A stretch of DNA of 64,000 nucleotides from Fibrobacter sp. (GTDB taxonomy: Bacteria > Fibrobacterota > Fibrobacteria > Fibrobacterales > Fibrobacteraceae). Under the pieces are notes generated by a model, which was given only the letters and a program-made list of their open reading frames with translations, was not told the DNA's origin and searched no databases. Position 1 is the stretch's first letter. Each line of letters starts with the position of its first letter. The position numbers were made by a program, and so were the translations under genes. The stretch lies in the NCBI GenBank assembly GCA_017412605.1, contig JAFPWY010000011.1, positions 186,001-250,000 of the forward strand, read 5' to 3'. Of the stretch, positions 45,565-56,185 are shown in pieces.

Positions 45565-45920
45565 CGGGTCCTCTCTTTTTCCAATATACAAAATGTAGCT
45601 TTTTTTGGGTGGCGAGAAGGGCTTGTTGGGGAGTGTAATTGACGGACTGCAAAGGGGTGGATTGTATGTTTGTAAAAGTTTGATTACAAAAGCGAGGGGC
45701 GATTGGCCGGGGGCTTTTTTTTCGCGTGCATGAATTGTGTGATTTATAAACATATTTTTGCAAATCAACCCTTTGTAAACACTTTTTTGTGTTGTTTTGC
45801 AAAAAAACACTTCTTTTTTTCCATAAAAAGGATAGATTTTAGGGCGGTGTAGCATAACAAGAACCGCGTGTTTTTGGTATTGCTGTATTGGTCGGAGAAC
45901 CTAAATTGGAAAAGAAGATT
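45565..45920. other. 356-base AT-rich intergenic region with divergent promoters
   Basis: On the minus strand a TATATTGG box at 45581-45588 serves the FHA-GGDEF gene. On the plus strand TAGATTTT at 45833-45840 could start the fibro-slime transcript with a leader of about 80 bases. The middle has runs of A and T and recurring tttgcaaa and acactttttt words near 45750-45815, and no convincing gene. The long leader could hold regulation, but no known riboswitch is seen. Confidence 0.45.
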
Positions 45921-48900
45921 ATGAAAAAACAATATAACGCCTTAAAAAAATTGGTGTTTGCATTAGTTCTTCTCTTTGCAGGGGTGCAAGGGGTGTATGC
46001 AGCGCTAGCGTGCGAAGGCACGATCTATTTGAAGCTGCCCAGTGGATGGACTACTGCCTATACAGTAGCTGGAGGTCAATTTATTGCCTTCAAGAAAAGT
46101 AGTCAATTTGCGGGATGGGTGGAACTCTCTGCAGAATCGGTCGGTGGAACGAACGATGCAACAGAATTCTTCATTTCAAGCCGTGCGAACGACTATGGCC
46201 AGTATCCGTCTATAACTCCGAAGATTATTACTACGGATGGTGAACAGGTCCAGTTCAAAGATGGTTCGGGCTTCAATTGTAGAGCCTTTGGCAAAAATGG
46301 AGAACTCTGGATTCAGCCGGATCCGTCCGATCCGACCAAGCCGTATATTTCTGATGGCGCAGCCGACGTGAAGTACTTCCGTATCATGCTGCCTGAAGAT
46401 GTCAAGTGGAAGAGTGCTATTCCGCTGATGAGTGTCGGTGGTGCCGCAGGAAAGCCCATGGACGCCGACCCCGATAGGTGTGGTTGGTATTTCTGGCGCT
46501 TTGTCGACGAGGAACCCCCTACCGAAGTTCTTATCTATCGTGATGACGATGAAAAGATGGAAGAAGCCATCGGTATGGAAGGTGACTGGGGTGTTGGTAA
46601 GCCGACCGCCATCGACCTGTCTTCGATGTTCGCGTTCTTGGGTTCCGATGAAATCTTCTTTATTGCGGCCAACGAGTTCGCCGATAAGACTAATCCTGCC
46701 ATGGCTGGTTGGAGTGCAACGGATCCGTATAAACAAGGTGCTTGCGGATATGACCTTGCTGCATACATTTACGATACCGATGCTAGCTTGCATGGTGCTT
46801 TTACTTGCAGCCATTATGAACAGCAATGCGAAGGCAATCCGGATGTTTGTAAGAACAACTCCTGCTACTATCCCAATGCTCCTTATAACGTTGTAAGCTC
46901 TGCTACTGCGGTTGTTCCCTGTATCGGTGTTACTCCAGGTATGGTGACCGATGTTCTGGATGCAACCACGAAAAAGCCGGCGTTGACAGATAAAGGTCGT
47001 TCATGCTTCGGTAGCCAAGCTGACGAGGCCTTTACTGCCATGTTCAACCCGACTCCGGGCGTGAACCAAGCTTTCTGTTTCAACATGCCGTTCAAGCAGA
47101 CGGATGACGGTAAGTACGAGTTCGATTCTGACAACTACCAGGGTCCTCCGGGAGCAGAATATCCTGCTCCGGGTGGTTTCTACCCGGCTGAAAAGACTCC
47201 GACGGATTTGTTGACTGAACGTATCCCTGCTGCTGAAAACAAGCGCTTGGCCGAAGGTCCGGTGTTCTTGTGCACGAACGGTCAGTTTGGTGATGGCCTC
47301 CGCGCAATTAACCCCCAGGAAGGCGTTCCGGAAATCGACCTGCTCTGCAGTGGTCCGGGCTGGAAAGGTGGTATAGATTGCACAGAAAAGTTTGCTAACG
47401 GTGGTGAATGGAAAGAATCCATTCGAGTTGGCAACAGAACGATCAGCTTCGACGGCGATGGCTGGGGCTGGGGCTGTCCGCAGGATGCTCCTGTTGGTTG
47501 GACCTTCTATTCTGCGGGTGAAAAGATTAGTGGCACGAAGGTCTCGAAGAACCAGAATCCTGAGGGCAATGCCCGCTGGACTTCGGGTGATCCGGATACC
47601 GAATATGGCGATGTCCTTAAGAATGCCGGTCGTAACCAGCACTTCTGCTTCGAATCTCATGCGAACTTCCGTTACAAGAAGGGCCTGCGCTTCAGCTTCC
47701 GTGGCGATGACGACATTTGGGTCTATATCGACAACAAGCTGGCCGTGGACCTCGGTGGTACTCACCTTGCCGCTCCGGGCTACGTAGACTTGGATAATTT
47801 CAAGGGCGCCTCGGGCGAACTCAAGATTGGTCAGGAATATGACATCGATATCTTCTTCTGCGACCGCCGTACGACGATGAGTAACGTTCGTATCAAGACG
47901 AACATGTTCATCAAGCAGCAGACCGGTCTTAACAAGACCCAGACAAACGATGGTAAGGGCGGTGTCGGTGAATACGAAGTTTGCTGGTCTGTTTCGAGTG
48001 ACGGCTCCTGTGGCGGTGGCTCTGGAGGAACTCTCTGTGGCCCGGCCTTGTGCAAGTATCTGGAAGAAAACAATATGAGCATCGATTACTCTCTCAAGAC
48101 CGACAAGGGTGATGTCATTTTGACTCCGGATTCGCTTGCTGCGAATAAAGTCTATAAGGGCGGCATTGACTTGACTCAGCGTTGCAACCCGGTTATCAGT
48201 AGAGGCCTTATCGAAAAGCTTTCTGCAGGTAACTATTCTCTCGTCGCCAACATTGGCAATGGCGAAGAATCCTGGGGCTTCGTTGTTGAAGGTGACCTTG
48301 AAGTCGTGAACGAAAATACGGCCACGGAAGATATCAACGGTCTCCCGGTTCAGTACAATGTGGTCCAGTCTGCCTTGGCCAGCTCGGATGATAATCCGTC
48401 CAGAGTTCCGATTTACATTACGTCGGTCCTGCCTGCAGGCGAAGACCTCGATCTTGACTTTGAAGGCGCTGCCGGTGAGTCTTATACCCTTAGCGTTACG
48501 GATGTCACGGGTGCTGCTGCGGGTGCCGTCCAGCTCGAATACAAGGATGCTGACGGAACCTTCAAGACGTGGAATGGTAAGACCCCGCGTAAGATTGGTG
48601 AATCGGGTATCGATACCATTTACGCCTCGCTCAGCATGGCATTCATGAACGCTGAACAGGAAACGTACATCTTCAGTGTAAGTGGCGGTAGCCTCACTCT
48701 GCCGGTCGTCTTCTACGTCCCGAAGCTGGTCTTTGTGGAATCGGATTCGAGCTTTGCTGCGATTACGGGTGACCCGGCTGATTACGAAAGATTCGTCGGT
48801 CCGGTGTACACGTTCTACGTCTTGGCCTTGGCTCCTTCCATGACGAATCCGGGCTCTTATGAAGAATGTGGCACACGTTGTAACTTCCGCCTGTACCTCG

Positions 48901-50561
48901 GGTCCACGACCTCTTCGGGTATTGCAATCACCGATTCCCTTATTATGGTGAATGGCCGCGCAACGGTTAACATCTACTCGACTAAGGAATACCGTGTTGC
49001 CGGTGATGGCGAACTGGATAACCCGGCTTTGCTCAGCATTACCGGTCCTAAGGCAACCTTGATTAACGCGATCTATCAGCCGCTCCACTTCAAGAAGCCG
49101 CCTGTACCGTACCCGGTATTTGCTGACATGTTCGATTCTCGAGGCAAGAAGTCGAGTGTTGAACTGAATATGAAGGAACCGTACTTCCAGATGGCCCAGG
49201 ATTACCTCGATGGTATTGCAGACTCCCTGGTTATCTACTATAACCGTCCGTTCTACAACCATCCGGACTCCTTGCCGAACAGAATTGTCGTGTTCTGGGA
49301 TGACGAAGACTCTGTCGTTGTTCAGAAGGAAGCCTTCGCTTCTAGCATTAAGTGCGGTGCTGCAGCCAAGGTTGCTGATACGCTTTGCGAACAGCGCGTC
49401 GTGGTTAGCGGTATCGACTTCTCTAAGGACATTAAGACGACAAGCCCGTCGGCAAACCTGAAGTCCTACGCTCGCTATAGCGACCGTGGTAAAGTTAAGG
49501 AAGATCCGTTCCCGGGTATTATTAAGGACCGTGTCGCTCCGATTATCAAGTCTGCTGACGTCCGTAACAGAGACGAACAGATGGATGTTATGACACTGAC
49601 ACTTTCCGAACCGGTTCGCTGGCTTGACCAGAGCTTCGAAAAGGCCGCCTTCACGGTGTACTTGAACTCTGCTTCCAACTTGAAGACTCCGGAACAGAAG
49701 TATGTCGTGGGTGTCCAGTCTAAGGGCGCTGCCACGATCGGTGGTGACAAGGTGACTATTATCTATGCTAGCTCCGATGCTAATCCGACTCCGCATACGG
49801 GTGACTACATCCGTTTCCGCACGGATACTCCGATTTGGGCTGATACGGCTACCATTGCGGTTCCGGGTGATACCCTCCGTAATATGCTTACGCCGGCGGA
49901 TAATCCTGCGCTTAACTGGAACTCTCCGACGTCTTACGATTCCAAGGAACGTCTGCCGTCTCCGTGGGCCTCGGTTACCGGTGAAGCTGAAGTTGGCGTG
50001 AAGTCCATCACGTACACCATGGTGTCTCCGGATATCGTGAACAAGGTGGACAAGAAGGATATCAAGATTACCTCTGTGAAGCCCTACGATGTCACGGTTG
50101 ACTACGATGAAGTTGTCGCTGACAATCCGGGTAAGCTCGGTTACTTCTTGAAGTCCGACATGAACTCGCTGATCTACTCCGACACCGTTATTTCGAAGTG
50201 GTTCACCGATCCGAACAATAAGGGCGACATTGCAAATGTGTACCTTGAAGTTCAGATGGATCTCTTCTCGAACCTCGGTAACTTCGTTGCTCACGATGTC
50301 GTGAAGATTAAGTGCGACGACAAGGATATCTATGGTGAAGGTCATACTTGCTTGGATACCCAGCGTAACTTCTTCATCTCCTGGAACCTCGTGTCTGCTG
50401 AAAAGCGTCTCGTGGGTACCGGTGCCTACGTCTCGAAGATGATGACCTCTGTTCACTTGTCCAAGTTCGGCAAGAAGAACAAGATGGACGAAACTCAGAT
50501 GTGGGGTGTCCGCCGCACCAAGAAAGCCAAGAAGATGACTGCGGAAATCGTGAACGAATAG
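45921..50561 (+). CDS. Giant secreted fibro-slime domain protein
   Basis: ATG 45921 gives 1546 residues with a signal peptide (LVFALVLLFAGVQGVYA). The fibro-slime domain is around residues 500-680 and is marked by HFCFESHANFRYKKGLRFSF, GDDDIWVYIDNKLAVDLGG and DIDIFFCDRRTTMSN, a PA14-like sugar-binding fold. A Cys-rich insert lies at residues 300-345. The rest is long beta-type segments, and the end (RNFFISWNLVSAEKRLVGTGAY then WGVRRTKKAKK) is typical of Fibrobacter slime proteins. Codons are biased to GGT and GCT, so expression is probably high. It likely coats the cell or attaches to fibre. A strong terminator follows. Confidence 0.9.
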   Translation: MKKQYNALKKLVFALVLLFAGVQGVYAALACEGTIYLKLPSGWTTAYTVAGGQFIAFKKSSQFAGWVELSAESVGGTNDATEFFISSRANDYGQYPSITPKIITTDGEQVQFKDGSGFNCRAFGKNGELWIQPDPSDPTKPYISDGAADVKYFRIMLPEDVKWKSAIPLMSVGGAAGKPMDADPDRCGWYFWRFVDEEPPTEVLIYRDDDEKMEEAIGMEGDWGVGKPTAIDLSSMFAFLGSDEIFFIAANEFADKTNPAMAGWSATDPYKQGACGYDLAAYIYDTDASLHGAFTCSHYEQQCEGNPDVCKNNSCYYPNAPYNVVSSATAVVPCIGVTPGMVTDVLDATTKKPALTDKGRSCFGSQADEAFTAMFNPTPGVNQAFCFNMPFKQTDDGKYEFDSDNYQGPPGAEYPAPGGFYPAEKTPTDLLTERIPAAENKRLAEGPVFLCTNGQFGDGLRAINPQEGVPEIDLLCSGPGWKGGIDCTEKFANGGEWKESIRVGNRTISFDGDGWGWGCPQDAPVGWTFYSAGEKISGTKVSKNQNPEGNARWTSGDPDTEYGDVLKNAGRNQHFCFESHANFRYKKGLRFSFRGDDDIWVYIDNKLAVDLGGTHLAAPGYVDLDNFKGASGELKIGQEYDIDIFFCDRRTTMSNVRIKTNMFIKQQTGLNKTQTNDGKGGVGEYEVCWSVSSDGSCGGGSGGTLCGPALCKYLEENNMSIDYSLKTDKGDVILTPDSLAANKVYKGGIDLTQRCNPVISRGLIEKLSAGNYSLVANIGNGEESWGFVVEGDLEVVNENTATEDINGLPVQYNVVQSALASSDDNPSRVPIYITSVLPAGEDLDLDFEGAAGESYTLSVTDVTGAAAGAVQLEYKDADGTFKTWNGKTPRKIGESGIDTIYASLSMAFMNAEQETYIFSVSGGSLTLPVVFYVPKLVFVESDSSFAAITGDPADYERFVGPVYTFYVLALAPSMTNPGSYEECGTRCNFRLYLGSTTSSGIAITDSLIMVNGRATVNIYSTKEYRVAGDGELDNPALLSITGPKATLINAIYQPLHFKKPPVPYPVFADMFDSRGKKSSVELNMKEPYFQMAQDYLDGIADSLVIYYNRPFYNHPDSLPNRIVVFWDDEDSVVVQKEAFASSIKCGAAAKVADTLCEQRVVVSGIDFSKDIKTTSPSANLKSYARYSDRGKVKEDPFPGIIKDRVAPIIKSADVRNRDEQMDVMTLTLSEPVRWLDQSFEKAAFTVYLNSASNLKTPEQKYVVGVQSKGAATIGGDKVTIIYASSDANPTPHTGDYIRFRTDTPIWADTATIAVPGDTLRNMLTPADNPALNWNSPTSYDSKERLPSPWASVTGEAEVGVKSITYTMVSPDIVNKVDKKDIKITSVKPYDVTVDYDEVVADNPGKLGYFLKSDMNSLIYSDTVISKWFTDPNNKGDIANVYLEVQMDLFSNLGNFVAHDVVKIKCDDKDIYGEGHTCLDTQRNFFISWNLVSAEKRLVGTGAYVSKMMTSVHLSKFGKKNKMDETQMWGVRRTKKAKKMTAEIVNE

Positions 50562-50585
50562 TTCCGAAGAACATTCATCCAGTTT

Positions 50586-50617
50586 AAAAAGTCCCCCCGT
50601 GCGGGGGACTTTTTTTG
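50586..50617 (+). terminator. Rho-independent terminator of the fibro-slime gene
   Basis: Stem aaaaagtcccccc/gggggactttttt with loop gtgc and a seven-T run. Confidence 0.92.
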
Positions 50618-50650
50618 CATTCGGGCCATTTTTACTATTATTGTTATGGT

Positions 50651-51064
50651 ATGAGAAATTTATTGATTGCATTGATTCTTTGCTCTATAGGGGCCTTTGC
50701 AGTCCAGCCGGGGCAGCCGACGGACTTGGATTCCCTTTTCCGCGGACGTGAATATAAGCCGCAGTTGAATTCCTCCTTGCGCGACACCACCAAGATGAAC
50801 GATGTTTCCTCGAAGTCGGTCAAGGGCGGGAAGTCCTCTGACGGGTACTACATGCTTCAGTTCGAGGCTGTCGGTGATTTTGATGCTGCCCAGCGTCGTC
50901 GTGCGCAGATTGCCGCCAGTACGGGCTTTGCAATCCAGGTCGTGTTCGATACGCCGTTCTACAAGCTGCGTGGCGGTGGATGGACGTCCAAGAAGGCTGC
51001 CGAAGACAAGGCGCGTGAACTGTCTGCCTACAATATCAATGCCTTCGTAGTGAAGGTCCGGTAG
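50651..51064 (+). CDS. Exported SPOR-domain protein
   Basis: ATG 50651 gives 137 residues with a signal peptide (MRNLLIALILCSIGAFA). The second half is a SPOR domain: YYMLQFEAVGDFDAAQRRRAQ, FAIQVVFDTPFYKLRGGGW, KKAAEDKARELSAYNINAFVVKVR. SPOR domains bind denuded glycan strands of septal peptidoglycan. A TATTATTG box lies 7 bases upstream. The gene sits between two terminators, so it is a single-gene unit. Confidence 0.83.
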   Translation: MRNLLIALILCSIGAFAVQPGQPTDLDSLFRGREYKPQLNSSLRDTTKMNDVSSKSVKGGKSSDGYYMLQFEAVGDFDAAQRRRAQIAASTGFAIQVVFDTPFYKLRGGGWTSKKAAEDKARELSAYNINAFVVKVR

Positions 51065-51089: not shown

Positions 51090-51122
51090 GGGCTCAGGTT
51101 TGTATACCTGAGCCCTGTTTGT
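51090..51122 (+). terminator. Rho-independent terminator of the SPOR gene
   Basis: A 10-bp perfect stem gggctcaggt/acctgagccc with loop ttgtat and a TGTTTGTATTT tail. Confidence 0.75.
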
Positions 51123-51144: not shown

Positions 51145-54100
51145 CTATTCCAGCAGGCCGAGAGTCTGCTTTATTGTGAACTCGTCCATCGATGACGGCA
51201 AGAGCGCGCGCTCTTCCGGGGCGACGTAGGCGAACTTGCGCTCGAACTCGCTGCACTGCGACCTGTCGCGGGGCTTCAGTTCGAGCGGCTTGGTGCTGTA
51301 GAAGAACGTTCCCGTCTTGATGAACTTCTTTGACTGCAGTCCCTGGTTGATGGCCTCGGTGAGCGCCTTCTGGATCATGGGGCCTTCGCGGTCGACGTGG
51401 TGGAGTTCCATGAGCCTGTGACGCAGCAGTTCCTCGTGGATGGGCGCCTCGTGGTCGACATAGAATTTCAGCTGCGTGATGAGCGATGCTGCCGGCAGTT
51501 CCGGGATGGGCTTGTCGTGCGCAGTTCCCTCGATGTTCGGGTGTGTGCACTTGTACGGGACCACCTCGATGCTGTAGGCGTCGTCCTCGGCGCTGCCGGG
51601 TTCGCCGTTCTCGCCGGAGTCTTCCTGTGGTGGCGGGGCAACGCTCTGTTCGATGGCGATGGTTGCGAGCAGGTGGGATTCCTCGTCCTTGCGGGACATG
51701 AACCAGAAGGGCAGCCAGATATTGATGACCTTCCAGCCGAGCTGTCGCAGCGTGATGGGCCGGACATATTCCGTGTCCTCGATGGATTCGCGGAATCGTT
51801 CCCTGGTGCAGTCGTCTTCGATAAGCGCAAGGAAACGCTTCGGGTTGTTCGCATCGACCACGACCGGTCCGACGGCGATGTTGCCCGTCTCGAAAATGGG
51901 CTCGACCTTTATGTCGTTGGCGGAGAGCGCCTCGACGATGTCCTTGCGCATGCGGGATTCCCCACAGTGCGGGGCTGTCGGCTTGAACTCGAGTTCGCGT
52001 TTCAGGTAACTGATCCAGTCCCAGAACAGCGTCAACTTGGGATTCGCATGCTTGGCGATGTCCGCATTGGAAATGTATACGCGCATTTCCTGCTTGGCGA
52101 GCGTCGTGCATACGGCAAGCTTGTTCGCCGATGCGGCCTCGGGTTCGGCGCATATCAGGATGACGTCACGGTACTTGTCGGTGGCCCTTTCGGGGGTCTT
52201 GACGTAGTAGCGGATGAGCGGGTTCTCCTGGTTGAAGAACTTTTCGGCTGCCGAGCCTTTCTCAACGAGCGCCCTGATGGCTTCCTCGATTTCTATACAG
52301 CTGGATTGGTGGAATGCGATGATTCCGAGCGTCTGTGCCGGATGCTTCTGGGCGTGATGTACGGCAGCGTTGGCAATTGCGATAATCTTGTCGTCGACGA
52401 CCGAGAGCGACTCGACGTTGTTCTTCTCGCGGAAGGGCCGCGGGAATTGCCTTATGCCCTGGTTGTAAATCTTGTTGTTCGCGAAGCAGACCAGCTTCAT
52501 GTCGACATACTGGCCGGCAAGCCAGAGTTCGCGCGTCGGGATTCCCCTGCGCAGGGACTCGGCCAGGAGGGACTCCTGGAAGTAGGCGGTGTGCCTCGGC
52601 AGGACGTCGTTGTAGGCGTCGTTCGGCAAATTCTCGATGGCGGGCGAATGCGGGTTGCCCATCAGCACGACTCTCTGCGAGCTGAGCAGAGCAGGCAGGG
52701 ATTCCACAATCGTGGTGCAGTCGGCGTCGAGGAAAATGACGATGTCGAAATTTTCCTTGCCGGTAAATTCAAAGGTGTCGTCGAGGGATGCCAGCGTAAG
52801 TAGTTCGGGGTTCGCTTCGACGGCGGCGTGCACAAAGCGGAAGTTTGCCTTGCAGAACTGGTCGTACAAGTTGCGGAAATCGCGGCTCTTGATACAACGT
52901 TCCTTAGGCGAGAGCGTGAACAGTTCGGGATTCTTGGTGCCGAGCTGCTGGATTTGCGAGCGTGCCCAGAAATTCCGGTAGGCTTGGGCAAATTCGTTGC
53001 TTACCTTGTCCGCATTCTGCAGGTAGACAAGCATCGGGCGCAGGTCGTATTGCGAGAGGTCCTTGAACAGGCGCGTGAGCCCTGTGTGGATGTCGAGGTT
53101 GTCCCAGTTTGCGTTCCAGGACTTGATCTTGCCCTCCCACTTCTCGATGGAAAGACTTTCAAGCGGGGTCTCGAGGTCGAGTTCCTTGCCAATCTTGCGG
53201 ATGGCATCTTGCAGGGCCTTGACCGAATTTGCGTAGTTGTTGAAATTCGAGAGCTGCGGCTTGATTTCGTGCCAGTGTTCTAGGATTTGCAACATGAAGT
53301 CGAGCTTGGGATCGGCCTCGTGCTTGTCGCGGAAGTTGAAAAGATACTTTATCTTCGTGTTGAGCTCGAACCAGTTGGACTTTTCGTATTTCCAGTCCTT
53401 GCCGAGCAGGTGGTTCCCGAGTACGGCGGTGTCCTTGTAGGCTCGCTTGTTCTCCTGCAGTTCGAGCAGGGTGTCGATCAGGTCGAGCAGTTCCGCATCG
53501 GAAGATACGGACTTGGGCTTGCGGAGGACTTTCAGGAGTGCGCGGCGCGAGCTGCGGTAACGGTCGGAGAGCCCCTTTAGCGTGACATTCAGGCTGTCTA
53601 CGAATTCTTCACGGGCCGCGAGCACGTTCTCGTCGACGGCGTCGTCGGTGTAGATATCCGATGTCTGGCGGCGGTACCTGACCCAGTTGTCGCCGGCTTC
53701 GGGCAGCGCCTTGAGTGAGTCGTGGTAGGCGACCCAGTTGTTGGAGCGGAGTTCCCAGTCCTCGTAGACCGGGGTGTTCTCGTCGAACGTGTTGAGTATA
53801 AGATCGATGGTCTCGGCAAGGCTTGATATGAAGATGCCGGTGGGGAAGAGCGATGCTTCCTTGAAAATATCGATGATCGGCTGGAGCTCCTTGACTTTGT
53901 TGACCGCCTGCTCAAGCTGTACAGAGATGGTGTTCTTTTCCTCGGTGGTGAGGTTCGGAACCTTGATTCCTTGGAACGCCAGTCGCGCCGAAACGCCCTG
54001 CTTGTTGAAATACAGGTCCATCGCCTGTTCCACGATGGTCTTGACGCGGTTGTACGTGGCGAAGTCAAGTTTGTCTACACCGTCGAATATGGATTCCGAG

Positions 54101-55248
54101 AACTTGGCCTTTGTCGCCGGGGCGAGCGCAAATTCCGTAAGCAGGTCAGAAAGCGGAGCGCCGGCCGGCAGGATGTTCTCGTTGACCGTCTTGTAGTATT
54201 CGATGAATGACTTGCGGGACTTGATGAAGTCCGGGTCGATGATATCGCGGTCCGGGCCCTGGAACGACTTGAAGGGGGGCTTCCAGGCGTTTTCGAATGT
54301 CTGCCGGGTCACGGCCCTCCTGGAGACGACCAGGATCTTCTTTCCGTTCGCTACGGATTCGGCGACGATGTTCGCCGCAACCTTGTCCTTCGCGGTTCCC
54401 GGCAATGTCTGGATGGCAAAGGCGGACTTGTCGTCCAGCAAGGATTCCATCACGGACTTCGTGGTGTGGGAATCCAGCGGGTAGGGAAAATGGTGGTCTA
54501 CCGGGTTGAACAGCTCATCGAACGGAGCCTCGTCGAAGTAGGAATTCTGCATCTGGAATCCGTCTTCGCCGAATAGCGCTTGGAGGACTGGACGGTCATC
54601 AACAATCTTTTCTTCCCAGATGTCGGATTCAAAGTGCTTTTTGAGCCTGAGGCGATCCCCGTTTGCAAACGAGAGGCAAAGGCCATGGCGCGTGAATTTC
54701 CATTTCTTCTCTTTAAGGACAGCCTTTTCAAAAAGTGAAAAGTAGAGAAGGATGCTGAATTGCCCGTTGATGCTTGCGTCCTCGACTCTAGGCAGGTCAA
54801 CGACGTCCTTGAGTCTTTCCCTGAGGATGACGTTCTCGATGGCGGGACGCTTGGAGAGGGACAGCTTGCTGGTCTTCGGGTCAAAATCTACGGGCACGAG
54901 AAGTGACGGCGCGAGCGCGTTGCCGTCCCACTTGAGGAAACCGAGAATGAGGTAGAGGTCGGACTTGCCGAAGTCTTCATTCTTTTGCCGCAGCACAGAA
55001 AGCATCTGTGCTTCCGTCGTCACCTTTTGCTGTGCGGTGAAGTTTGCGGAAACGGGCAGGAAAGTGTCTAGCGAGATGGCTTCGCCGGACTGGGCCCACT
55101 TTTCGTAGAACAGGTCACCCGCTTCCAGAATCAGGGGGCTTTGCAGCACGCCCTTCGTCGAAAAATTCAGAAAACGATCCTTGGAATCAAAAAGCGCCGC
55201 TTCTTGACGGATTTTCGTAATCATGGATGACGGTAACACTCGAGCCAT
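51145..55248 (-). CDS. Large helicase/Vsr-nuclease/DUF3320-like protein with eroded helicase motifs
   Basis: The 1367-residue cytoplasmic protein follows the order of DUF4011-SF1 helicase-Vsr-like nuclease-DUF3320 proteins. Walker A is degenerate (QTLPGTAKDK, residues 280-289; expected GPPGTGKS/T). Walker B is FDIVIFLDAD (about 834; expected DEAS). Motif III is VVLMGNPHSP, and the HYRS site is lost before LVCFANNKIYNQG. The nuclease-like part keeps an E and D (LIEDDC, about 1138) and LGWKVINIWLPFWF (about 1170). The DUF3320-like end is YVDHEAPIHEELLRHRLMEL with KALTEAINQGLQ. Relatives occur in phage defence; here ATPase activity is doubtful. It stands alone, with a TATATTCT box 4 bases upstream. 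Confidence 0.7.
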   Translation of the reverse strand: MARVLPSSMITKIRQEAALFDSKDRFLNFSTKGVLQSPLILEAGDLFYEKWAQSGEAISLDTFLPVSANFTAQQKVTTEAQMLSVLRQKNEDFGKSDLYLILGFLKWDGNALAPSLLVPVDFDPKTSKLSLSKRPAIENVILRERLKDVVDLPRVEDASINGQFSILLYFSLFEKAVLKEKKWKFTRHGLCLSFANGDRLRLKKHFESDIWEEKIVDDRPVLQALFGEDGFQMQNSYFDEAPFDELFNPVDHHFPYPLDSHTTKSVMESLLDDKSAFAIQTLPGTAKDKVAANIVAESVANGKKILVVSRRAVTRQTFENAWKPPFKSFQGPDRDIIDPDFIKSRKSFIEYYKTVNENILPAGAPLSDLLTEFALAPATKAKFSESIFDGVDKLDFATYNRVKTIVEQAMDLYFNKQGVSARLAFQGIKVPNLTTEEKNTISVQLEQAVNKVKELQPIIDIFKEASLFPTGIFISSLAETIDLILNTFDENTPVYEDWELRSNNWVAYHDSLKALPEAGDNWVRYRRQTSDIYTDDAVDENVLAAREEFVDSLNVTLKGLSDRYRSSRRALLKVLRKPKSVSSDAELLDLIDTLLELQENKRAYKDTAVLGNHLLGKDWKYEKSNWFELNTKIKYLFNFRDKHEADPKLDFMLQILEHWHEIKPQLSNFNNYANSVKALQDAIRKIGKELDLETPLESLSIEKWEGKIKSWNANWDNLDIHTGLTRLFKDLSQYDLRPMLVYLQNADKVSNEFAQAYRNFWARSQIQQLGTKNPELFTLSPKERCIKSRDFRNLYDQFCKANFRFVHAAVEANPELLTLASLDDTFEFTGKENFDIVIFLDADCTTIVESLPALLSSQRVVLMGNPHSPAIENLPNDAYNDVLPRHTAYFQESLLAESLRRGIPTRELWLAGQYVDMKLVCFANNKIYNQGIRQFPRPFREKNNVESLSVVDDKIIAIANAAVHHAQKHPAQTLGIIAFHQSSCIEIEEAIRALVEKGSAAEKFFNQENPLIRYYVKTPERATDKYRDVILICAEPEAASANKLAVCTTLAKQEMRVYISNADIAKHANPKLTLFWDWISYLKRELEFKPTAPHCGESRMRKDIVEALSANDIKVEPIFETGNIAVGPVVVDANNPKRFLALIEDDCTRERFRESIEDTEYVRPITLRQLGWKVINIWLPFWFMSRKDEESHLLATIAIEQSVAPPPQEDSGENGEPGSAEDDAYSIEVVPYKCTHPNIEGTAHDKPIPELPAASLITQLKFYVDHEAPIHEELLRHRLMELHHVDREGPMIQKALTEAINQGLQSKKFIKTGTFFYSTKPLELKPRDRSQCSEFERKFAYVAPEERALLPSSMDEFTIKQTLGLLE

Positions 55249-55252
55249 ACCG

Positions 55253-55260
55253 AGAATATA
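55253..55260 (-). promoter_or_regulatory. TATATTCT box, 4 nt before start
   Basis: Minus strand, 4 bases before ATG 55248 of the large helicase-like gene. Confidence 0.4.
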
Positions 55261-55282: not shown

Positions 55283-56185
55283 CTATATGCAAGTTTCTAT
55301 TAGTAAAATAGCTCGGTCTAGCGAAAGCGGGGCCGGAGTTTCCTGTAATTTGGCTTTGAAGCATACTCTTCCGAGCAGAGTTTCGGGGGTTACGCCGGCT
55401 TCGCGTTCTTGCCGGAGGCTATAGGCCAGTTCCCTTTTGGACAGTTTTTTCCCGGAACTGTCGGATATCAATGCGTGGTGCAGGTAGATGGGGTGTTCCT
55501 TTACGCCCAAAGCCTCACGCAGGGCTATCTGGCGTGCCGTGGAACTGCGGATGTCCTCGCCGCGGACAATGTGCGTGATGCCTTCGTCGATGTCGTCGAC
55601 GCAGACGGCGAACTGGTAGGTCCATTGGCCTTCGCGGTCGCGGATGGGGAAGTCCCCACACTGGAGTTTCGGGTTTTCGGCGAAGTCGCCCAGCCGCAAA
55701 TCGTGCCACTTGATTACTTTGTCTGGAACAACGAATCTGAGGTTGTGCGGTTCCATCTCGTGCCGCAAATCTTGTGCCTCCTCCTCGAACCACGAGCCTT
55801 GCGCCTCGTGCCTTGCCAAGCACTTCCCCTGATACACGATTTCACCGGTCTCGCTCTTGGGGTTTTCGGCCTCGAGCTGCTTGCGGCTGCAATAGCACGG
55901 GTACACGAGCTGCTGCTCTTCCAGCCGTGCAAGGGCTTGCTCGTAGAGGGGCCAGCGCTTGCTCTGGATGCTCTCGCTGTCGTAATGGAAGCCGAACCAT
56001 GCGAGGTCTTCGTAGATGCCCTCGACGTAGGCGGGGCGCATCCGGCTCTGGTCGTGGTCCTCGATACGCAGATGAATCTTGAGGTCCCACTTTCGTGCGG
56101 CAGCCCAGACGTAGAGCGCGGAGAGCAGGTGCCCTTCGTGCAGGAATCCCGTGGGGCTTGGCGCGAAACGTATTTTGCCGGACAT
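55283..56185 (-). CDS. gluQ: Glutamyl-Q tRNA(Asp) synthetase
   Basis: The 300-residue protein is a shortened glutamyl-tRNA synthetase lacking the anticodon-binding domain. HIGH is present as FAPSPTGFLHEGHLLSAL, KMSKS as GKKLSKRELAYSLR, and a Cys pair in YPCYCSRKQLEAE fits the zinc site. GluQ attaches glutamate to queuosine of tRNA-Asp, which agrees with queA being in the same window. A TAAATTTG box is 5 bases before ATG 56185. An unlinked full gltX is at 25640. Confidence 0.92.
   Translation of the reverse strand: MSGKIRFAPSPTGFLHEGHLLSALYVWAAARKWDLKIHLRIEDHDQSRMRPAYVEGIYEDLAWFGFHYDSESIQSKRWPLYEQALARLEEQQLVYPCYCSRKQLEAENPKSETGEIVYQGKCLARHEAQGSWFEEEAQDLRHEMEPHNLRFVVPDKVIKWHDLRLGDFAENPKLQCGDFPIRDREGQWTYQFAVCVDDIDEGITHIVRGEDIRSSTARQIALREALGVKEHPIYLHHALISDSSGKKLSKRELAYSLRQEREAGVTPETLLGRVCFKAKLQETPAPLSLDRAILLIETCI

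What the first reader, a model, noticed from the sequence alone, without database searches (positions are those of the whole stretch)
51145..55248. A 1367-residue defence-type helicase/nuclease protein with a broken ATPase core
Region order matches DUF4011-SF1 helicase-Vsr-like nuclease-DUF3320 proteins, several of which act in phage defence. Nearly every ATPase motif is altered: TLPGTAKDK for GPPGTGKS/T, FLDAD for DEAS, MGNPHSP for GDPxQ, HYRS lost. The nuclease-like part keeps an E and a D, and DUF3320 is clear. This may be a pseudo-helicase kept as scaffold, sensor or inhibitor-type partner. It stands alone with its own promoter box.
Basis: partly seen in the sequence, partly recalled or inferred. 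Interest (0 to 1): 0.78.

Follow-up and report, generated by a model that had tools for sequence, protein, structure and literature searches.

The report
Conserved dead helicase-nuclease of Fibrobacteraceae
This gene makes a large protein descended from a bacterial anti-virus helicase-nuclease whose motor and cutting sites have both been lost, yet almost every Fibrobacter genome keeps it intact in the same chromosomal place, so it probably does a non-enzymatic housekeeping job.

Summary
Window 51145-55248 (minus strand) encodes a 1367-aa protein that aligns over its whole length with ProA/Hhe/PDC-S37 anti-phage helicase-nucleases (hhalign probability 100, E 1.4e-83). The degenerate motifs are not decay: in 75 aligned orthologues, down to about 30% identity and across seven genera, every ATPase motif is broken (GK[ST] never intact, DEAS to LDA[DE], HYRS and QGDE lost, motif VI Arg to Leu/His). 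The nuclease also looks dead (metal Asp lost in 73/73, RDRDR lost; only E-x-D remains). Orthologues occur in 78/80 Fibrobacter genomes and six sister genera, at one locus directly downstream of gluQ (rare exceptions), under strong purifying selection (dN/dS 0.03-0.09). A TATATT box sits 5-9 nt before the start codon in 74/74, as in a leaderless promoter. Intact ProA-like genes are rare in the genus (3-4 of 80) and unlinked. Best reading: a domesticated pseudohelicase/pseudonuclease kept as a core scaffold or nucleic-acid-binding protein. Retained defence is possible but less likely; RecC/AddB replacement, decay and inhibitor pairing are disfavoured. Biochemical function is not shown. New variant of a known kind.

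The parts
51145..55248 (-). Whole gene: 1367-aa pseudohelicase/pseudonuclease, Fibrobacteraceae core protein related to ProA/Hhe/PDC-S37
55255..55260 (-). TATATT -10-like box ending 6 nt before the ATG (leaderless-type promoter, inferred)
   Evidence: box 5-9 nt before the start codon in 74/74 orthologues, exactly 6 nt in 64; spacing enriched genome-wide
54619..55176 (-). DUF4011 region, residues 25-210
   Evidence: Pfam (residues 84-146); 12 of 15 orthologues match
54382..54408 (-). Degenerate motif I (Walker A) TLPGTAKDK, residues 281-289
52849..54303 (-). Long helical insertion between motifs Ia and II, residues 316-800; its core (497-640) is more conserved here than in catalytic relatives
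   Evidence: PDC-S37 stretch 343-803
52717..52737 (-). Degenerate motif II IFLDADC, residues 838-844 (DEASQ in catalytic relatives)
52639..52665 (-). Degenerate motif III LMGNPHSPA, residues 862-870
52039..52608 (-). RecA2-like domain, residues 881-1070, HYRS lost at 911-914
52093..52188 (-). Degenerate motifs V and VI, residues 1021-1052 (QGDE lost, RD kept; motif VI Arg to Leu1050)
51634..51960 (-). MTES_1575/Vsr-type nuclease fold, residues 1097-1205; metal Asp and RDRDR lost, E1144-x-D1146 and GW/W residues kept
51295..51543 (-). DUF3320 region, residues 1236-1318
51148..51294 (-). Conserved C-terminal tail, residues 1319-1367 (RDRS...ERK..YV.PEERALLPSS), about as conserved as DUF3320
55283..56185 (-). 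gluQ (tRNA glutamyl-Q(34) synthetase), near-constant upstream neighbour; context, not claimed to be a functional partner
51090..51115 (.). Palindromic terminator-like hairpin GGGCTCAGGTTTGTATACCTGAGCCC between this gene and the convergent SPOR-like gene
   Evidence: consensus scan; the number of hits in the region is no greater than chance

Best explanation
The gene encodes a domesticated pseudoenzyme. An ancestor of the ProA/Hhe/PDC-S37 type (DUF4011, Upf1-like SF1B motor, Vsr/MTES_1575 nuclease, DUF3320) was captured by the Fibrobacteraceae lineage, lost ATPase and nuclease catalysis once before the sampled genera diverged, and became a vertically inherited core gene next to gluQ. It most likely works without hydrolysing ATP or cutting DNA: the two RecA-like halves and the dead nuclease form a platform that binds a nucleic acid and/or a partner protein, and the surfaces now under strongest selection are the helical insertion core, the DUF3320 domain and the C-terminal tail. 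It is probably transcribed from its own -10 box as a leaderless or nearly leaderless mRNA. Shown by sequence: homology, motif loss, conservation, synteny, purifying selection, conserved box. Inferred: loss of catalysis, a single ancient inactivation, scaffold or nucleic-acid-binding role, housekeeping rather than defence, leaderless transcription.
For: Full-length profile-profile match to catalytic relatives; PADLOC and NCBIfam hits. All ATPase motifs broken in 75/75 orthologues and nuclease Asp lost in 73/73, while eight catalytic relatives keep the motor motifs. Orthologue in 78/80 Fibrobacter genomes (the two without one are 65% and 71% complete) and in 15 genomes of g28, g29, g30, g32, g33, g34. 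Same locus, gluQ usually 7-71 nt upstream on the same strand. dN/dS 0.03-0.09, mostly below gluQ in the same genome pairs, and distances correlate with gluQ (r = 0.80; highest of 500 permutations 0.29), as expected for vertical descent. Conservation moved away from the motifs (0.80-1.00 in catalytic relatives, 0.38-0.71 here) to the insertion core, DUF3320 and C-tail (0.61-0.68 here against 0.38-0.41). TATATT box in 74/74. Intact ProA-like genes in the genus are rare and lie elsewhere in the genome. RecA2 domain matches UPF1/Aquarius/SLFN/IGHMBP2 structures. Precedent: D. radiodurans PriA lacks ATPase and helicase activity but binds DNA and interacts with DnaB (PMC4504706).
Against: No biochemical, expression or genetic data. 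Walker A Lys is kept in 59/75 and an acidic residue persists in LDA[DE], so weak nucleotide binding cannot be excluded. E1144 and D1146 are invariant, so metal binding is conceivable. AlphaFold models are weak (pLDDT 54 and 52), so the claim that the fold is intact rests mainly on sequence. No nucleic-acid or protein partner was identified. The gene was not found in g25, g26, g27, g31 and one g34 genome, so it is not needed in the whole family.
Confidence: 0.72

Rival explanations
1. It is still a phage-defence protein: an ATP-independent sensor that binds phage DNA, RNA or a phage protein and acts by sequestration or by recruiting another effector.
For: Its closest relatives are anti-phage proteins; E-x-D and the nuclease core are kept.
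Against: Fixed at one syntenic locus in 78/80 genomes with vertical descent and dN/dS of 0.03-0.09, unlike sporadic, island-borne defence genes; no effector gene recognised beside it; recognisable neighbours are housekeeping genes.
Confidence: 0.2
2. It is a catalytically active but highly diverged ATPase or nuclease that uses non-canonical residues (K287, D841, D/E843; E1144, D1146, D1132).
For: K287 in 59/75; D841 in 75/75 and acidic 843 in 74/75; E1144 and D1146 in 73/73, D1132 in 72/73.
Against: The Gly before K, the Ser/Thr after it, motif IV Arg, motif VI Arg, the DE pair, the metal Asp and RDRDR are lost together; K287 is W, A, G, L, V, R or N in 16 orthologues.
Confidence: 0.1
3. Recent pseudogenisation: a decaying copy of a helicase gene.
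For: One orthologue has an internal TAG (G027) and one is split in two frames (G058).
Against: Nearly all other orthologues are open end to end, share the same broken motifs, and show dN/dS of 0.03-0.09.
Confidence: 0.01
4. It is the RecC/AddB-like dead subunit of a RecBCD/AddAB-type exonuclease in a lineage lacking that subunit.
For: RecC and AddB are known dead helicase-type scaffolds (own knowledge).
Against: The same genome encodes a three-gene RecC-, RecB- and RecD-like cluster (1227, 1251 and 636 aa; identified by size, order, UvrD-helicase profile hits to the RecB- and RecD-like frames and reading of motifs) on another contig.
Confidence: 0.03
5. It is an inhibitor or regulatory partner of an intact ProA/Hhe-type homologue in the same cell.
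For: Dead paralogues can act as dominant-negative partners (general knowledge).
Against: G000 has no second homologue and only 3-4 of 80 genus genomes carry an intact one, unlinked.
Confidence: 0.03

Closest known systems
ProA anti-phage protein (NCBIfam NF058533) / PDC-S37 (PADLOC PDLC05009)
   Same: Same order DUF4011, SF1B motor with long helical insertion, MTES_1575 nuclease, DUF3320; full-length profile alignment
   Different: All catalytic motifs lost, score far below the equivalog cut-off (233 against 1500 bits), core gene rather than accessory, about 200 aa shorter than its 1534-1566-aa relatives
Hhe (DUF4011 anti-phage protein, NCBIfam NF042953)
   Same: Shares DUF4011, motor and nuclease stretches (73.5 bits)
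   Different: Hhe is about 1800-1915 aa with intact motifs; score 73.5 against a cut-off of 2000
Deinococcus radiodurans PriA pseudohelicase (PMC4504706)
   Same: Lineage-wide loss of helicase motifs in a kept bacterial helicase; non-catalytic role retained
   Different: Different helicase family; PriA is a replication-restart protein, whereas this derives from a defence-type family and has lost a nuclease too
Yeast Utp25 pseudohelicase (PMC9539457)
   Same: Helicase fold with dispensable motifs in an assembly factor
   Different: DEAD-box type, eukaryotic ribosome assembly, no nuclease part
RecC/AddB dead helicase-type subunits (own knowledge)
   Same: Helicase/nuclease-type fold used without motor catalysis
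   Different: Different SF1 family; the genome has its own RecBCD-like cluster

Membership tests
ProA/PDC-S37 anti-phage helicase-nuclease | Full-length homology to family members | tested here: met
   hhalign probability 100, E 1.4e-83, 1320 columns; PDC-S37 3.6e-106
ProA/PDC-S37 anti-phage helicase-nuclease | Score above the NCBIfam equivalog cut-off | tested here: not met
   233 against 1500 bits; two intact relatives also fall somewhat short (1241 and 1391 bits)
ProA/PDC-S37 anti-phage helicase-nuclease | Intact SF1 ATPase motifs | tested here: not met
   Broken in 75/75 orthologues, intact in 8/8 reference relatives
ProA/PDC-S37 anti-phage helicase-nuclease | Intact MTES_1575/Vsr-type nuclease residues | tested here: not met
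   Metal Asp lost 73/73, RDRDR lost, E-x-D kept
ProA/PDC-S37 anti-phage helicase-nuclease | Anti-phage activity | not testable with these tools
   Needs phage challenge
ProA/PDC-S37 anti-phage helicase-nuclease | Sporadic, defence-island distribution | tested here: not met
   78/80 genus genomes, fixed locus
Hhe | Score above the equivalog cut-off and intact motifs | tested here: not met
   73.5 against 2000 bits; motifs broken
Pseudohelicase (functional class) | Helicase homology with catalytic motifs lost while the gene is kept by selection | tested here: met
Pseudohelicase (functional class) | Biochemical lack of ATPase and unwinding with a retained function | not testable with these tools
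   No biochemistry here
Upf1-like SF1B fold | RecA2 domain superposes on SF1B helicases | tested here: met
   Residues 940-1067, Z 10-13.5; best trimmed rows about 108-121 residues at 2.1-3.7 A against Aquarius, UPF1 and SLFN14. RecA1 is low-confidence and was not tested alone

The most novel reading that the evidence does not exclude
A whole bacterial family has turned an anti-phage helicase-nuclease into a fixed, non-catalytic core protein with a new housekeeping function (for example an RNA or DNA scaffold, or a partner of replication, translation or tRNA machinery), i.e. domestication of an immune effector by loss of both enzyme activities.
Probability: 0.6. Interest if true: 0.75.

Novelty: new variant of a known kind. 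Interest (0 to 1): 0.6.

Why it matters
Domesticated, catalytically dead derivatives of defence systems in bacterial core genomes seem hardly documented; I found no paper on this protein in the few searches made. It gives a clean natural experiment: which surfaces of a DUF4011/DUF3320 helicase-nuclease stay under selection when motor and nuclease are dead. Those surfaces (insertion core, DUF3320, C-tail) may point to the partner-binding or sensing parts of the active anti-phage relatives, whose mechanism I did not find described in the library searched.

Tried and rejected
Pfam alone gives no helicase model and would have misled. PDB sequence search gave nothing. AlphaFold on two fragments with ten sequences was poor (pLDDT 54 and 52); only the RecA2 part was usable, and the long-range alignments with rmsd near 20 A were ignored. 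An obligatory pair with gluQ: rejected, because G052 keeps the gene with gluQ elsewhere and in G160 only a GltX-type homologue was found, and because the gene has its own conserved box. RecC/AddB substitute: rejected, a RecBCD-like cluster is present. Decay: rejected. The sigma-70 scan found no promoter, yet the TATATT box is conserved in 74/74. The gluQ tree was too weak to say whether g27 lost the gene or never had it; the missing copy in G165 (g34) looks like a loss or an assembly gap. Literature: nothing found on this protein or on ProA under the terms tried. No further genome-contig scan was available to look for dead DUF4011 proteins in other phyla.
Full report
What is there. The minus strand of 51145-55248 encodes one 1367-aa protein with an ATG start. 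Upstream on the same strand, 34 nt away, is gluQ (tRNA glutamyl-Q(34) synthetase, just below the family cut-offs). Downstream and convergent is a small SPOR-like gene (named by reading; no NCBIfam match). The genome has 3.53 Mb in 15 contigs and holds no second copy.

Family. Pfam finds only MTES_1575 REase, DUF3320 and DUF4011, each slightly below its gathering score; 15, 11 and 12 of 15 orthologues match them. PADLOC PDC-S37 (3.6e-106) and NCBIfam ProA (4.5e-69) and Hhe (6.6e-21) cover the motor. Profile-profile comparison of 15 orthologues with eight catalytic relatives gives probability 100, E 1.4e-83 over 1320 columns. So it is a full-length relative of DUF4011 anti-phage helicase-nucleases. 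The structural evidence is limited to the RecA2-like domain (940-1067), which superposes on Aquarius, UPF1, SLFN14 and related SF1 proteins (Z 10-13.5, about 3 A over about 115 residues), within a low-confidence model.

Broken motifs are conserved. In 75 orthologues aligned with eight intact relatives: motif I GPPGTGKS became xLPG[TS]xKx, with the Gly before Lys lost in 75/75, the Ser/Thr after it lost in 72/75, and Lys kept in 59/75; motif II DEAS became LDA[DE] (75/75 have no DE pair); the motif III glutamine column is mostly His, Cys or Lys; HYRS is absent in 75/75; motif V QGDE is lost with RD kept; the motif VI Arg is Leu or His in 74/74. In the nuclease block the metal-binding Asp is lost in 73/73, RDRDR is replaced by an ED..Y.R block, and E1144 and D1146 are kept in 73/73. 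Orthologues of 29-38% identity from genera g28, g29, g30, g32, g33 and g34 show the same state. The simplest reading is one inactivation before these genera split.

Not decaying. Synonymous and non-synonymous distances for 15 close pairs give dN/dS of 0.03-0.09, mostly lower than gluQ in the same pairs (0.06-0.19); pairwise distances correlate with gluQ (r 0.80, highest of 500 permutations 0.29), as expected for vertical descent. Two of about 93 orthologues are interrupted (G027, one TAG; G058, frame split). Conservation has moved: motif columns average 0.80-1.00 in catalytic relatives but 0.38-0.71 here, while the insertion core, DUF3320 and C-tail average 0.61-0.68 here against 0.38-0.41 in the relatives, at similar overall conservation (0.52 and 0.49).

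Core gene at a fixed locus. An orthologue is found in 78 of 80 Fibrobacter genomes, the two without one being 65% and 71% complete, and in 15 genomes of six other genera; none was found outside the family among 168 phylum genomes (a short G122 fragment scores better with the catalytic family). It sits directly behind gluQ in nearly all, usually followed by the convergent SPOR-like gene. In G052 gluQ lies elsewhere, and in G160 only a GltX-type homologue was found, so the pair is not obligatory. Intact ProA-like genes occur in only three Fibrobacter genomes with full matches (G006, G032, G046) and perhaps G048, at other places.

Own promoter-like box. TATATT lies 5-9 nt before the start codon in 74/74 orthologues, exactly 6 nt in 64. 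At that spacing a -10 box would place the RNA start at or next to the ATG, which suggests a leaderless message. The same spacing is enriched genome-wide: 100 TATATT-N6-ATG against 15 for the reversed control and 30 at a spacing of 13.

Mechanism. Most likely a non-catalytic platform: a dead motor and dead nuclease that keep their fold and bind a nucleic acid and/or partner protein. Precedents are D. radiodurans PriA, which lost ATPase and unwinding but binds DNA and interacts with DnaB (PMC4504706), and yeast Utp25 (PMC9539457). A RecC/AddB-like role is unlikely because a RecC-RecB-RecD-like cluster exists. An ATP-independent defence role remains possible but fits poorly with a fixed core locus and strong purifying selection. 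A P. aeruginosa study notes that a DUF4011 gene is also a core gene there, at the edge of a defence hotspot (PMC10250203); whether its motifs are intact was not tested.

What is not shown. No activity, expression, structure of the whole protein or partner. Whether g25, g26, g27 and g31 lost the gene or never had it is unresolved.

Noticed in passing
window 55255-55260 and genome-wide (one search list): TATATT exactly 6 nt before ATG is strongly enriched in this genome (100 against 15 for the reversed pattern and 30 at spacing 13), and at 6-7 nt in held loci: suggests that many Fibrobacter genes have leaderless mRNAs.
   Followed up: partly
L069:4734-9338, L070:5131-10998, L071:4008-9956: Rare intact ProA/Hhe-like helicase-nucleases (1534, 1955 and 1982 aa) in three Fibrobacter genomes, with full motor motifs, at unrelated loci.
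   Followed up: partly
L179:2975-12239: RecC-, RecB- and RecD-like three-gene cluster; the PDDEXK_1 profile finds no match in the genome although a RecB-sized protein is present.
   Followed up: no
L140 and L139: DUF3320 helicase-nucleases on Vibrio and Hymenobacter plasmids beside uncharacterised genes (DUF262 protein; DUF4236 protein), possible defence islands.
   Followed up: no
window 45888-50561: Large probably secreted protein (1557-aa ORF) with a region that reads like a fibro-slime/PA14-type domain; relatives lie beyond the SPOR-like gene at most orthologous loci.
   Followed up: no
window 47001-50672 (-): 1223-aa open frame antisense to the large secreted-protein gene; most likely a composition effect, not a gene.
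   Followed up: no
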